64,000 nucleotides of DNA from Mesostigma viride. Taxonomy: Eukaryota; Streptophyta; Mesostigmatophyceae; Mesostigmatales; Mesostigmataceae. Both the position numbers and the translations under genes were made by a program. The stretch spans positions 9,715,334-9,779,333 of the forward strand of contig RPFO01000065.1 in the NCBI GenBank assembly GCA_009746045.1, given 5' to 3'. The notes under the pieces are model-generated. The model saw nothing but the letters and a program-made list of their open reading frames with translations, made no database searches and was not told where the DNA came from. This document shows positions 9,440 through 46,600 of this stretch, in pieces; positions within the stretch are counted from its first letter, which is position 1; each line of letters starts with the position of its first letter.

Positions 9440-9523
9440 TCACCAGAGCACTTTGCAGCGCACCGCCTCGGCTCGCACTGATCGCTTGCGGTCGTCCAAG
9501 CAACCAGTCACTGTCCGGAGCAC
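9440..9523 (-). CDS. MMS19: MMS19 exon 19 (stop codon)
   Basis: 27 codons and TGA: VLRTVTGCLDDRKRSVR then AEAVRCKVLW. This is the LDD.KR.VR.EAV.CR..W terminus of the family. Confidence 0.95.
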   Translation of the reverse strand: MLRTVTGCLDDRKRSVRAEAVRCKVLW

Positions 9524-12500
9524 CTGCAGAGCCACACACCCTCATACGGCATCACGGTACGAATGTCGTAGAAGTTCACGTTTGAGAAGTTGAAAAAAAA
9601 AAAAACGTTATTAACATATGTGGCGGCACCTGAGGGCCAGCGCAAAATAAAGGATTCAGCCGCCGCGTACCAACATCAGACAAGTTAGTTTTTCATTTGA
9701 AATATTCAAGAAAAGCCACATCAACATAATGTAGAAATCTTAACACAAGCTAAGATAAATTTCCTCATGTTAATCTTAGTACGAGCGCATAGTTGTGCGC
9801 AGCATTCCACCCACAGCATTGTGCACTGTCGTGAACCAGGTGGATGCAAGGGCCAGGTGGGCATGGAGTGGTGTGTTGAAAGCTACAAGAAACCTGTTGG
9901 GGTAGGTGCTCTGGGTGCCACATCAAACACTAGGGTGGGTTCGTTGCATGCCGATCCGAGTTCCCGCCCAAAACCAAACATGGGGCTATGCAAGCGCGAG
10001 GCGTGCAGTTTCCATCATGATGCTTGCACCGTCACGACCGTGATGCTCTGCACAGCTGCCTACTTGCTGGCCGGCCGGCAGCACCCGGTCTGCACTTGCA
10101 TGTGGCACTCGCTGCTTGTCGCATGTCCTGGCTAGCTCAGAGCTCGTAGGCAAGATACCAGATACAATGTTTTATAGCGTGCCTCGCTACAGTAATTGGT
10201 ACCCACCTTCTGCTTGTAAGGGTAGAGCGTCTTATAGCGCGCGTTCACAATGGCAAGTGTCATGGGGTAGCTTGTTACAGTGACCAGCACCCACCATCTG
10301 TTCATGTGGATAGACCGCCTTGTAGCGCGCACTCGGGAAGGCGAGTATTATGGGGATACTTGTTACAGTGACCGGCACCCACCTTCTGCTTGTAAGGATA
10401 CAGTGTCTTGTAGCGCGCGCTGGACACAACTTCCAAGCACTGCAGTGCTGTCTCACGCACTTTCTGTTCAGGTCAGGCATGAGACAGTAATGGTCATCAC
10501 AGCGAAATTGGATAAATGGTTCAATGACACCGCAGCTGCAGTTCGAACGATTGCCACAGCAGATGGCTAAGTACGCAGCAAATGCCATCAGAGTAACTAC
10601 CACAGCAAATGCATGACTCAAGAGTACAGCAGCGCAAATGCAAAAAAAGGGTGCAACATGCATGGTGAAATTCGGAAAACTAGAGGGATTGAGTATTCTG
10701 CCTCCAGTGAAAAACTAAGAAGGCCTGCGGGCCCCCCAGGTAGGAGGCTGCTTTAGACAACTTCGCTTACTACTCGGGAGAGAAATTTGCGGTGCTGACG
10801 AGAAGGTAGTTGCTACGGGAACTAATGAACAAGTATTGACTCTAGCTTGCGTGTATTTCATCAACCCTATGCTAATCCAGGGTAAGTATCATATCGACTT
10901 GCGTTATGCAGCAGCAGCATCCCACCCAGGCTTGGGCAACGCCCTCACCGCAAAAATGCCAACGCCGCATGTATTCCCAAACCATGACCGTGCCGAAAAG
11001 GCAACATAACGACACAACACACACAAAAACACACACACACACAAATAAACGCAGAGGGACTGCACAGAGAGGATGCATGAGGCGCCCAACCCTGGCCCCA
11101 GGCCTCAGGGTGCCCCGTGGTTCACCGCGCAGTGACAGCGCACGACAATTAAGCCAAGAGAAGATGCAAGGATGGCCGGTGGCTGATGGTGAACAGCTCT
11201 GGACCAGTGCTCATGCAAGGGATGCAGATAGAGCCATGGGGTAGTGCTACAGTAGTGTACTACATCAAAGATAATAATACATGCAATCATGGCCGTTTGC
11301 ATACCAGGGATTTAGCTATCATCACTGAGTCGTGTGGTATCCTTACAGCGATGTGCTACCACTGCCTGGAATAAACATGAGCCCCTTGAAAGTACGAGAC
11401 ACAATACACACGACTATGGCCATCCTACACCCCCAGTACGGTATTCAATGTACACCGACGGCTTTGCAAGGCAAACCCCCTAAAAAGGTTGCGATCATGT
11501 ACACACAAGAGCTATCACACCCACCGAGGCTACCCTGAGAGCGCCAGCTCCCCACACGTAACGAAGATGGAAATGGACAGTTTGACATAACCACAGCATG
11601 ACAAAAGGTAACAACCAAGCTGACTATGATGACGGAAGGCAACACAATCATCATGACCATGCTCTATCCCCTCTAGAAAGCATAGTGAGGCTCCTAAACA
11701 TGCTACGGAGCTCGCCCACCCACCCTCGAGTGCTCGTAGCCTGTGAGCGCCAGCAAGACGGTGATGAGCTCGTCCAGGTGCTTCTCTGCCTGCTTCTGGC
11801 CTGCAGGGTGGTAGCGGTGGCACCATTACGTAGGCATTACTACATCGTAACGCGGTGATGAGATGTGGTGGCACCTAGAACGACAGCTATTGGCGGCAGC
11901 AAACTGCCCGCTGGTGTGCCAGTGATGAAAGCGGTGGAAGAGCGGTGACTATTGGCGGCAGCAGCGAACAGCCAGCATGGCAGCTGGCAGCGGCCTTAGC
12001 AGCACAAACAGCGAGATTTCTGAAGCATGTCATCAGTAACATCAGCAAGCATAAGTATGTTCAAGATACAAGTATTCATAACATACTACTACGAGAACTT
12101 ATGCATTAAAAGCGTAAGCAGTAACGTTTGCTGGGTGACGTATGGCGACGGCACGCCCATGTACAAGCACGTGAGCCCCTGGGGCATAGACACACGGCCT
12201 CAACCGGGGCCATGCGGTCGAGGCACCCCCCCACCTGTGCCACAAACCGCAACTCCAAAACAACCACCTGCATGCTGGAGAAAAGATCGCGCCTGCATTC
12301 ACTGAACGATAGGACACATGCCTCAACAGAGGCACGTGACTTAAAAAAAGAAAATATGACAACAACAAACCAAATAAAGACGGATTCTGTAGCTATAGAC
12401 CCTGGGAAGAGGGGACCATGCTGCGGCGTCACGGGCCCGAAGATTGCCTTCAAACGCAAGCTTTCCTTTCAAGGACGAGAAGAAACGCAAAATGCCAGAC

Positions 12501-43600: not shown

Positions 43601-46600
43601 GCAGCGCACACAGGTACTACTACTAAATTACAGCGCTTGCAATCGCGTCGCGCATCCGGAGTGTTGGCGGTGCACACAAACACTAACTAGGGTGCTTGCA
43701 TTTGCATCATTCCTTGGTGCATATGTGTGCACGTGTGTACTCATTATAGTGCTTGCAACGGCATCATGCCTCTGTGCGTTCGCGGTGCAGGTGTGGAACG
43801 GCTCCCTCCTGCTGGCGGACTTTGTGCTTCACCACAGCGCGCATTGCCCAGGCAGCGATGCACGCGTGCTGTTCCCAAGGGGCATCAAAGTTCTCGAGCT
43901 GGGCGCTGGAACCGGTGAGTTGTCGTTATTACATTGATTACCCTGGCAGCACGCATGGAGGCCTCTCCGGTCAGCTATCGTGATGGTGCGATCTGGGCAC
44001 TTGGACCGCTGAGGTGTCACGATTGTGTGATAGGGCATAGGGACCGGTGAGCTGTCGTGATGGTGCCATCTGGGCACTGGGACTGTTGAGGTGTCACGAT
44101 TGTATGGTAGGGCATAGGGACCGGTGAGCTGTCGTGATGGTGCGATCTGGGCACTGGGACTGTTGAGGTGTCACGATTGTATGGTAGGGCATAGGGACCG
44201 GTGAGCTGTCGTGATGGTGCGATCTGGGCACTGTGACCGCTGAGGTGTCATGATTGTGTGATAGTTTATTGAAATGTTCAAAGGTTTCGGCTGTTCTATG
44301 TTGGATAATCCATGAAGGCCTTCCATTGCATCTATAGCGTGTCAAGTTACAACCGGCTGTTTTCTCATCACTTTTTGTGTCAGCATATAGAAGTCACTGT
44401 TACCAAGTGGCTTATGTCCGCCCCACGCTGCTGCTTGGATGTGCACTGCCACCAATCATAGTGCGCGCAGGACCGCCCACTGCCCTCATTCCCCATGCTC
44501 GCATCACTCAGCCGTCGTGTGTGTTTTCTTTTGAAATGGCTTCTTATCCTACTTTTGATGGAGTTACGTATCTGCACGTGCTGGCGAACGCAGGTCTTGT
44601 CGGGCTGATGCTGGCAAAGGTTGCAGCGCGCGTCTACCTGACAGGTCAGCCAGATAGGCCAACCCCCAGGAATGAGACCCCCATTCCATTATCATGGCAT
44701 GTTTAACCGCTGCGCCTATTCATAGCGCTGGGGAGTCGATGTGTTCTTTCCAATGGTCTTGACTTGCCACTGGAATACGGCATGCGTGGTTGGAGTCTAA
44801 GTGGCTGGTGACTCCCCCCGCTGCCGCCCCCCCCCACTGGCCTGCATGTGTGTTTGCGTTTGCTCCAATTTTCAGCGTGCCTAGATTCCCCCCGCTGCGT
44901 CCGCTCAATACCCTTGTATTATGTGAGGGAGTAGATATTTTCACTGTCATCTGCTCAGCACCCCTTACATTGCACCCATTCTTATAGACTTGGAAACTGA
45001 GGCCACAGGTGCGGAGTGGTAACGGTCTGCTTCATCCTTTGGGGACTTGGCCTTCAGGCCATGTGCCGCCCTCCACACTATTTCTTTCAAGAAACGTGAC
45101 TGCATGTGCTAAAAGTTTATTACTGGCTACTGGCCCACAATACCAAATGCGCCAACGAATGGTTTAGCTCTTGCCCGTCTCTTCATTTGCTGAACATATT
45201 AAAACCTTGGATTACCCGGGATAAGGGCCACCAAGAACCGATGAACTACTACGAAAATGATTTGAAAATGATGCATTTTCATCTTTATCTCTAAACGTAA
45301 TTATTTTTGCTGTGCACCATGCATGGCTCTTGAATTATTGCTGGCGTTGCCACCCCAACTACATGCCCATGCGCTCATCCAAGCTGATACAACGTCTCTT
45401 TGTGCCACTCTTATCCGCATTCATGCTGCATTTGTCTGCCCCTACAAATTGCATAACTTACCCCCTCAGAGGCTTTATGGCCCCTGCTCCCCCTGCCCCC
45501 CTGGCCCCCTAGGCCCCTGCCCCCCTGCCCCCCTGCCCCCCTGGCCCCCTGGCCCCCTTGGCACTTGCCCCCCTGGCCCCTGGCCTAGGGATAGGGATAG
45601 GGATAGGGATAGGGATAGGGACAGGAACAGCGATAGGGATAGGATAGGGATAGCGATAGGGATAGGGATAGGGATAGGGATAGGGATAGGGATAGGGATA
45701 GGGATAGGGATAGGGATAGGGATAGGGATAGGGATAGGGATAGGGATAGGGATAGGGATAGGGATAGGGATAGGGATAGGGATAGGGATAGGGACAGGGA
45801 TAGGGATAGGGACAGGGATATAGGGATAGGGATAGGGACAGGGACAGGGACAGAGGATAGCGATAGCGATAGGGATAGGGATAGGGATAGGGACAGGGAC
45901 AGGGATAGGGATAGGGACAGGGATAGGGATAGGGATAGGGATAGGGATAGGGATAGGGATAGGGATAGGGATAGGGATAGGGACAGGGACAGGGATATAC
46001 TTCTCCGAGCACTACATCCAAACTCTCCGCCCTTGGGGGGGGGCAGGGGGAGGGTGGGCTCTCGGGGCAAGGTCAGGCTCTGAGGGGGGTAGGTCACCTA
46101 ATTTGTGGCCCACCATCTTTTATTGTCTTTTATCCTACTTCTAGTATATTATCTATTCTCTTTTACACATCTTTTTATAATTGATGGATGGCCCCATGGA
46201 CTTGTGCGTTCCTGCCCTGAACCCGCCCGATAGACATCGGCATTGACGTCGTAGAGAACTGCCGCCGCAACGTCGACGGCTGGTACCAGCGCCAGGAGCA
46301 TGGTCAGGGTCAGGGCGACGAGCGTGGTCAGCCTGCTGGCACGGAGGACAGCTTGAGGTACTGGCATCCAAGAGGGAGCCCCAGTGCAGAGAAGGGGCCA
46401 GGGCAGGCCAGGGGCCAGGCTGCGAGGGAGGATGACAGGTCGCTGGGGCAGGGGCTACTGTCCGGGGTTGTTCACGGTGGACCCTCGCGGGAAATGGAGC
46501 TGGGGAAGGGTGAGCTGAAACATCCCATGGCTAACACCTTGAATAATAAGGTAACAAAGTCCGGGGAATTGCTGCCTTGCAACGCCGGGGATGACAGGCT

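What the first reader, a model, noticed from the sequence alone, without database searches (positions are those of the whole stretch)
9440..44275. Exon edges with their splice sites are repeatedly duplicated into adjoining introns
In two unrelated genes on opposite strands, introns carry tandem, partly decayed copies of the neighbouring exon's edge including the splice site. Clear cases are MMS19 exons 3, 4 and 5 (acceptor), 9 and 18 (donor) and 16 (both), and METTL22 exon 3 (both); weaker ones are MMS19 exons 8 and 10. The duplications have different periods (about 30 to 150 bp) and no shared sequence, so they are not one transposon. Inference: a recurrent local process, perhaps replication slippage or repair at transcribed junctions, makes spare splice sites, enlarges introns and may seed minisatellites. 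I know of no standard name for this pattern.
Basis: partly seen in the sequence, partly recalled or inferred. Interest (0 to 1): 0.85.

Follow-up and report, generated by a model that had tools for sequence, protein, structure and literature searches.

The report
Duplicated exon edges inside algal introns
In two genes of a green alga the ends of exons, splice sites included, have been copied several times into the neighbouring introns; this is real and recurs in other genes of the same genome, but it is a known kind of repeat (called "mirages" in amphioxus) and looks more like ordinary tandem duplication tolerated next to exons than a new process.

Summary
The window is from the green alga Mesostigma viride. 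It carries MMS19 (- strand, 21 exons, identical to the public protein) and a METTL22-like gene (+, 8 exons). Of 54 exon-intron junctions, 14 have a copy crossing the junction within 500 bp (12 clear); 0.04 are expected when the same probes are run against other introns. Exons 8 and 10 do not reach the cut-off.

It recurs in CCT/Cpn60 genes of the same genome: 15 of 84 junctions, 0.95 expected.

A border-directed process is not shown. Strict counts, at least 10 on each arm, give 7.2% at borders, 9.6% in adjacent intron and 4.8% deep in introns.

Best explanation: ordinary minisatellite-forming tandem duplication, denser near exons, tolerated because the authentic outer splice site stays in use.

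New member of a known kind, in a streptophyte alga.

The parts
8847..36712 (-). MMS19 gene, 21 exons / 20 introns
   Evidence: Protein from my exons equals P0001 (jgi/Mesvir1/24422) letter for letter; Pfam MMS19_N and MMS19_C
34980..35448 (-). Exon 3 (35034-34980) and its acceptor array: 82-bp unit, 4 near-identical units counting the authentic edge, plus 2 decayed copies; copied acceptors at 35117, 35199, 35281, 35365, 35435
   Evidence: TRF 35016-35341 period 82, 4.0 copies, 95%; copies, where AG is kept in 5 of 5 in-register copies (2 further off-register matches are listed there)
34249..34722 (-). Exon 4 and copies of its acceptor at 34706 and 34459
   Evidence: scores 19, 17; AG kept in both
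33540..33962 (-). Exon 5 and copies of its acceptor at 33929 and 33815
   Evidence: scores 29, 23; AG kept in both
33402..33539 (-). Intron 5 start with a copy of the exon 5 donor at 33419
   Evidence: score 17
29662..29934 (-). Exon 9 and donor copies at 29814, 29755, 29718 (29787 and 29685 degenerate)
   Evidence: spacing about 27-37
23655..27419 (-). Exon 11 and its donor edge running into a 21-bp, 156-copy minisatellite
   Evidence: TRF 23655-26939; exon-edge copy at 26955; junction score 19
20284..20662 (-). Exon 14 and acceptor copies at 20629 and 20557 (20483 degenerate)
   Evidence: scores 17, 15, 14
12829..13402 (-). Exon 17 and acceptor copies at 13051, 13192, 13294 (13360 degenerate)
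   Evidence: scores 39, 17, 18, 15
12706..12828 (-). Donor copy of exon 17: 47 identical nt (44 of exon end plus GTG), 120 bp away
10162..10463 (-). Exon 19 and donor copies at 10294 and 10206 (88-bp unit)
   Evidence: TRF 10201-10418 period 88; (scores 52, 43)
37684..49018 (+). METTL22-like methyltransferase gene, 8 exons / 7 introns
   Evidence: Methyltransf_16; matches P0014 except for 42 residues skipped there
41977..42197 (+). METTL22 exon 3 end and donor copy at 42177
   Evidence: score 18
43877..44277 (+). METTL22 exon 4 end and donor array (77-bp unit made of two halves of about 39); GT kept at 44047, 44124, 44201, lost in the other half-units
   Evidence: TRF 43967-44264

Best explanation
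These are mirage-type minisatellites: ordinary tandem duplications of about 20-220 bp whose breakpoints happen to lie on either side of an exon-intron border. They arise in a genome whose introns are full of tandem repeats. A duplication inside an exon changes the protein and tends to be removed. One that starts in the exon and ends in the intron leaves the protein intact as long as the outermost, authentic splice site goes on being used. Such copies therefore persist, lengthen the intron, decay, or expand into minisatellites. Shown: the copies, their splice signals, the unbroken gene models, and recurrence in other genes of the genome. Also shown: a strict-definition rate at borders no higher than in adjacent intron, and 1.5 to 1.8 times the deep-intron rate at arm cut-offs of 10 and 8 (1.1 times at 12). 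Inferred: slippage, template switching or unequal exchange as the duplicating step, and near-neutrality as the reason for persistence.
For: Junction-crossing copies in 14 of 54 window junctions and 15 of 84 junctions of 12 CCT/Cpn60 stretches; mismatched controls expect 0.04 and 0.95. Intronic tandem repeats are abundant: 37.6% of intron probes in the window have a nearby copy, 11.3% without the arrays of 10 or more copies (on the earlier 50-junction model). Strict border rate 10/138 against 80/836 near and 233/4849 far. The pooled probe profile is a plateau without a peak at the border. Strong events avoid exons: 0 exon-only against 23 intronic at score 24. Public protein models use the authentic sites. 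Amphioxus mirages have the same anatomy and are reported to splice normally.
Against: Event-level counts exceed random placement at score 17: window 12 of 38 against 5.7 expected with 30% of intron set aside (P 0.004); CCT 10 of 23 against 4.0 (P 0.0016). A simulation gave no detection bias that would explain this, ratio 1.03. Near-donor events mostly reach the exon: 17 of 21 against 6.5 expected. Window donors taken alone do peak at the border: 9 of 26 probes there against 2 of 25 at +45. At low scores exons are hardly depleted: 4 exon-only against 37 intronic events at score 17, 9 against 40 at 16, with exons about 19% of the two genes' length. The adjacent-intron control shares some arrays with the border, so it is not independent.
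Confidence: 0.7

Rival explanations
1. A border-directed mutational process, for example R-loops or G-rich single strands just after donor sites, makes duplications start at exon ends more often than elsewhere.
For: Lenient event-level excess in two gene sets; donor events 17 of 21 crossing against 6.5 expected, acceptors 6 of 26 against 5.9; window donors peak at the border; donors with a copy have G-rich, skewed intron starts, skew 0.357 against 0.112, P 0.001.
Against: With at least 10 on each arm the donor bias is gone (5 of 67 donors, 5 of 71 acceptors) and the border rate does not exceed the adjacent intron. G-rich starts may also inflate weak alignment scores. The donor/acceptor split was noticed afterwards.
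Confidence: 0.19
2. Selection keeps the copies because spare splice sites buffer splicing errors or, at donors, bind U1 and protect long introns.
For: Splice dinucleotides kept in 25 of 38 window copies, above the score-matched intron null in each of four score classes, and in 12 of 15 CCT copies; of 26 copied sites picked because they keep GT or AG, 16 reach the median of authentic sites.
Against: The parent site is constrained, so higher retention is expected without selection on the copy, and several copies come from one array. Use of the exon 3 copies would read into TGA in frame (sequence read directly). 13 of 38 copies have lost the dinucleotide or are out of register.
Confidence: 0.06
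3. Intron gain in progress by tandem duplication: copies will be, or sometimes are, used as new exons or splice sites.
For: Potato RdRp gained an intron from a duplication crossing an intron-exon border (abstract and Results section, PMC4974935); repeats at human exon-intron boundaries can form novel introns (passages and Discussion, PMC2812944).
Against: The window copies lie inside existing introns; the public MMS19 and METTL22-like proteins use none of them.
Confidence: 0.04
4. Artefact: chance similarity of splice consensus, or an assembly error.
For: Long-read assemblies can mis-join repeats (general knowledge); some weak matches are G-rich.
Against: Mismatched-intron and shuffle controls expect 0.04 and 0.4 of 54; copies are diverged to different degrees and recur in other genes.
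Confidence: 0.01

Closest known systems
Mirages, amphioxus (Adh3, globins BflGb6 and BflGb9, troponin C, PGBD5)
   Same: Minisatellite-like tandem duplications of exon-intron boundaries, at 5' or 3' borders, units of about 10-160 bp, many with AG/GT kept, regular splicing reported as undisturbed (PMC3087553 section read; PMC3902484 passage)
   Different: Here in a streptophyte alga, with many copies decayed, and in a sizeable share of the junctions of two genes at once; no haplotype or RNA data here
Tandem genomic duplication model of intron gain (Rogers; potato RdRp case)
   Same: Same elementary mutation, a tandem duplication that can cross an intron-exon border (PMC4974935; review passages PMC3443670)
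   Different: No new intron or exon results; the copies stay intronic
Internal tandem repeats at human exon-intron boundaries in segmental duplications
   Same: Tandem repeats sitting on exon-intron borders (PMC2812944 passages and Discussion)
   Different: There recent and tied to altered transcripts; here mostly older copies with an unchanged protein model
Introners
   Same: Add intron sequence (recalled; a paper on them appears in the listing, not opened)
   Different: Introners share sequence between sites (recalled); here each copy matches only its own exon edge

Membership tests
Mirage minisatellites | Tandem repeats span an exon-intron boundary | tested here: met
   14 of 54 window junctions, 15 of 84 CCT junctions at score 16
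Mirage minisatellites | Either boundary can be duplicated, unit lengths vary | tested here: met
   Donors 20 of 67, acceptors 9 of 71 at score 16; units about 20 to 220 bp
Mirage minisatellites | Many copies keep AG/GT | tested here: met
   25 of 38 window copies; 12 of 15 CCT copies
Mirage minisatellites | Regular splicing undisturbed | tested here: inconclusive
   Public protein models use the authentic sites; no RNA available
Mirage minisatellites | Length instability between haplotypes or somatically | not testable with these tools
   One assembly, no reads
Intron gain by tandem duplication | A new intron or exon is created | tested here: not met
   Copies lie inside existing introns; public protein models do not use them
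Introner / transposon | Shared sequence between sites | tested here: not met
   Junction probes against other introns: expected 0.04 of 54 at score 16

The most novel reading that the evidence does not exclude
In Mesostigma, introns grow from their exon edges: duplications preferentially start at the 3' ends of exons, just before donor sites with G-rich intron starts. The constrained exon edge acts as a lasting master copy that keeps feeding tandem copies into the intron, some of which become minisatellites. Existing donors would then be mutational hotspots and a main source of intron length in this lineage.
Probability: 0.16. Interest if true: 0.7.

Novelty: new member of a known kind. Interest (0 to 1): 0.38.

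Why it matters
It carries mirages from amphioxus to a streptophyte alga and suggests they are common there. Of 138 junctions examined, 18 have a copy scoring at least 8 on each arm. That makes a genome-wide, RNA-backed test of intron growth and spare splice sites easy to run in a species with long introns and an available assembly. It also warns gene annotators that good-looking splice sites beside real ones may be copies.

Tried and rejected
A transposon or introner origin was rejected because copies match only their own exon edge. Detection bias as the cause of the lenient excess was tested by simulation and rejected, ratio about 1.03. A first alignment method and the position-level comparison (50-junction model, before exons at the ends of the two genes were added) were replaced, the latter because a few huge arrays dominate it. 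A donor-only hotspot looked strong but failed the strict arm test, so it is kept only as the novel case. Local gene conversion at the exon 17 donor: the flanks of the 47-nt identical core are only marginally similar (P 0.02-0.03), so left open. Recursive splicing was considered and not pursued. An ab initio gene scan of 18 unselected 10-kb stretches was planned and dropped in favour of homology-anchored CCT genes; those stretches were not analysed. Kinesin matches were found but could not be fetched. No RNA family reached its threshold in the window. The first event scan timed out and was rerun; the CCT scripts failed and ran corrected.

Counts dropped: of 58 CCT matches listed, 51 were used. 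Left out were one intron-less gene (C2011), three hits on C1641 that mirror C887, one on C1106, and two outside the fetched stretches. Of 102 possible exon ends, 84 passed the site-score and length filters; 18 were not examined.
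Full report
What the window is. The minus-strand gene gives, from 21 exons, a protein identical to P0001, a Mesostigma viride record by its source name (jgi/Mesvir1/24422; taxonomy), with Pfam MMS19_N and MMS19_C. The window is the last 64 kb of contig C1468 of a 440-Mb assembly. The published genome paper gives a mean intron of 1142 bp and 30.1% repetitive elements in intron space (passages of PMC6947507).

Does it recur. 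I searched the same assembly for Cpn60/TCP1 genes, fetched 12 stretches, and fixed exon borders from the protein matches and splice scores: 51 exons and 84 junctions, 38 of them in 19 introns where both borders are tied together. These genes were not chosen for the pattern. Fifteen of 84 junctions carry a crossing copy at score 16; 0.95 are expected from mismatched introns. Examples are a 76-bp array of 3.9 copies on a donor (L028) and a 48-bp array of 10 copies on a donor (L023).

Is the border special. The evidence is mixed and I give both sides. (a) Against random placement of each duplication in its intron, crossing events are in excess at score 17: window 12 of 38 against 4.2, 5.7 or 7.5 expected with 0, 30 or 50% of intron set aside (P 0.0002, 0.004, 0.041); CCT 10 of 23 against 2.9, 4.0 or 5.3 (P 0.0001, 0.0016, 0.014). 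At score 24 with 30% set aside it is 6 of 24 against 3.9 and 5 of 21 against 3.7, not significant. A simulation shows no detection bias. (b) Position by position, CCT borders at score 16 (17.9%) exceed intron positions outside large arrays (10.3%, P 0.025) but not those within 250 bp of a border (14.4%, P 0.22); counting large arrays the intron figure is 18.1%. At score 20: 14.3% against 7.3% (P 0.018) and 8.5% near (P 0.051). (c) The pooled profile of probes from 45 bases inside the exon to 250 inside the intron is a plateau falling with depth; window donors alone do peak at the border, 9 of 26 against 2 of 25 at +45. (d) With at least 8 on each arm: border 18 of 138 (13.0%), adjacent intron 123 of 836 (14.7%), deep intron 356 of 4849 (7.3%; P 0.013 against deep, 0.74 against adjacent), mismatched 6 of 1104. 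With at least 10: 10 of 138 (7.2%), 80 of 836 (9.6%), 233 of 4849 (4.8%; P 0.13 and 0.86), 0 of 1104. With at least 12: 6 of 138, 47 of 836, 198 of 4849. The adjacent-intron figure includes some arrays that themselves cross the border.

Donor and acceptor. Lenient counts point to donors: near-donor events 17 of 21 cross against 6.5 expected, near-acceptor events 6 of 26 against 5.9; single junctions 20 of 67 against 9 of 71, P 0.021. Donors with a copy have G-rich intron starts. With 10 on each arm the difference is gone, 5 of 67 and 5 of 71. I therefore keep a donor hotspot as the boldest reading, not as the conclusion.

How it most likely works. A duplication that begins in an exon and ends in the intron leaves the authentic outer splice site and the reading frame untouched; one inside an exon does not. 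Strong duplications indeed avoid exons (0 exon-only against 23 intronic events at score 24), but weak ones hardly do (4 against 37 at 17, 9 against 40 at 16), while exons make up about 19% of the two genes by my exon table. If a copied exon 3 acceptor were used, translation would meet TGA in frame (read from the sequence), so use must be rare or the product discarded; this is inference. Copies then decay or expand: the exon 11 donor edge runs into a 156-copy 21-bp minisatellite and the METTL22 exon 4 donor into a 77-bp array.

What is known. Tandem duplications of exon-intron borders are called mirages in amphioxus: Adh3 and globins (PMC3087553, passages and section 16 read), troponin C and PGBD5 (PMC3902484, one passage). 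The anatomy matches, splicing is reported as regular, and the globin authors call the mechanism unclear. A border-crossing duplication created a new intron in potato (PMC4974935, abstract and Results section), and repeats at human exon-intron boundaries are described (PMC2812944, passages and Discussion). Drosophila cases concern duplicated proto-splice sites in coding sequence (PMC2891723, passages). In ten paper searches I saw no listed title or abstract that reports this from a green alga; several listings were cut at 20 rows and the library lacks most subscription journals, so this is weak evidence of absence.

Limits. Two genes plus 12 stretches, no RNA, no second strain, CCT borders predicted rather than annotated, and a window picked because the pattern was noticed in it.

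Noticed in passing
12872-12826 and 12752-12706 (-): The exon 17 end copy is identical over 47 nt while both flanks are strongly diverged, as if a short conversion tract or templated insertion had refreshed the core.
   Followed up: partly
47203-47417 (+): The public METTL22-like isoform RA.2 uses a donor inside exon 7 and drops 42 residues present in the full exon.
   Followed up: partly
about 17790-17380 and 16360-15950 (-): MMS19 intron 15 holds two nearly identical stretches of about 400 bp in direct orientation (seen by reading the sequence, not measured).
   Followed up: no
2280-4835 (-) and 50892-57156 (+): Retroelement-like polyprotein open frames flank the genes; the label is from reading the translations, no family search was made.
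   Followed up: no
42269-43547 (+): A 36-bp, 35-copy minisatellite in METTL22 intron 3 begins about 90 bp after a copy of the exon 3 donor that is followed by part of the unit (GAAGGAGAGGGTTTGG).
   Followed up: no
64000: The window ends exactly at the end of contig C1468, inside a CCCT repeat.
   Followed up: no
G000 contigs C1641:60944-67934 and C887:345845-349664: Three Cpn60/TCP1 matches appear on both contigs with identical scores, suggesting uncollapsed haplotypes or a recent duplication.
   Followed up: no
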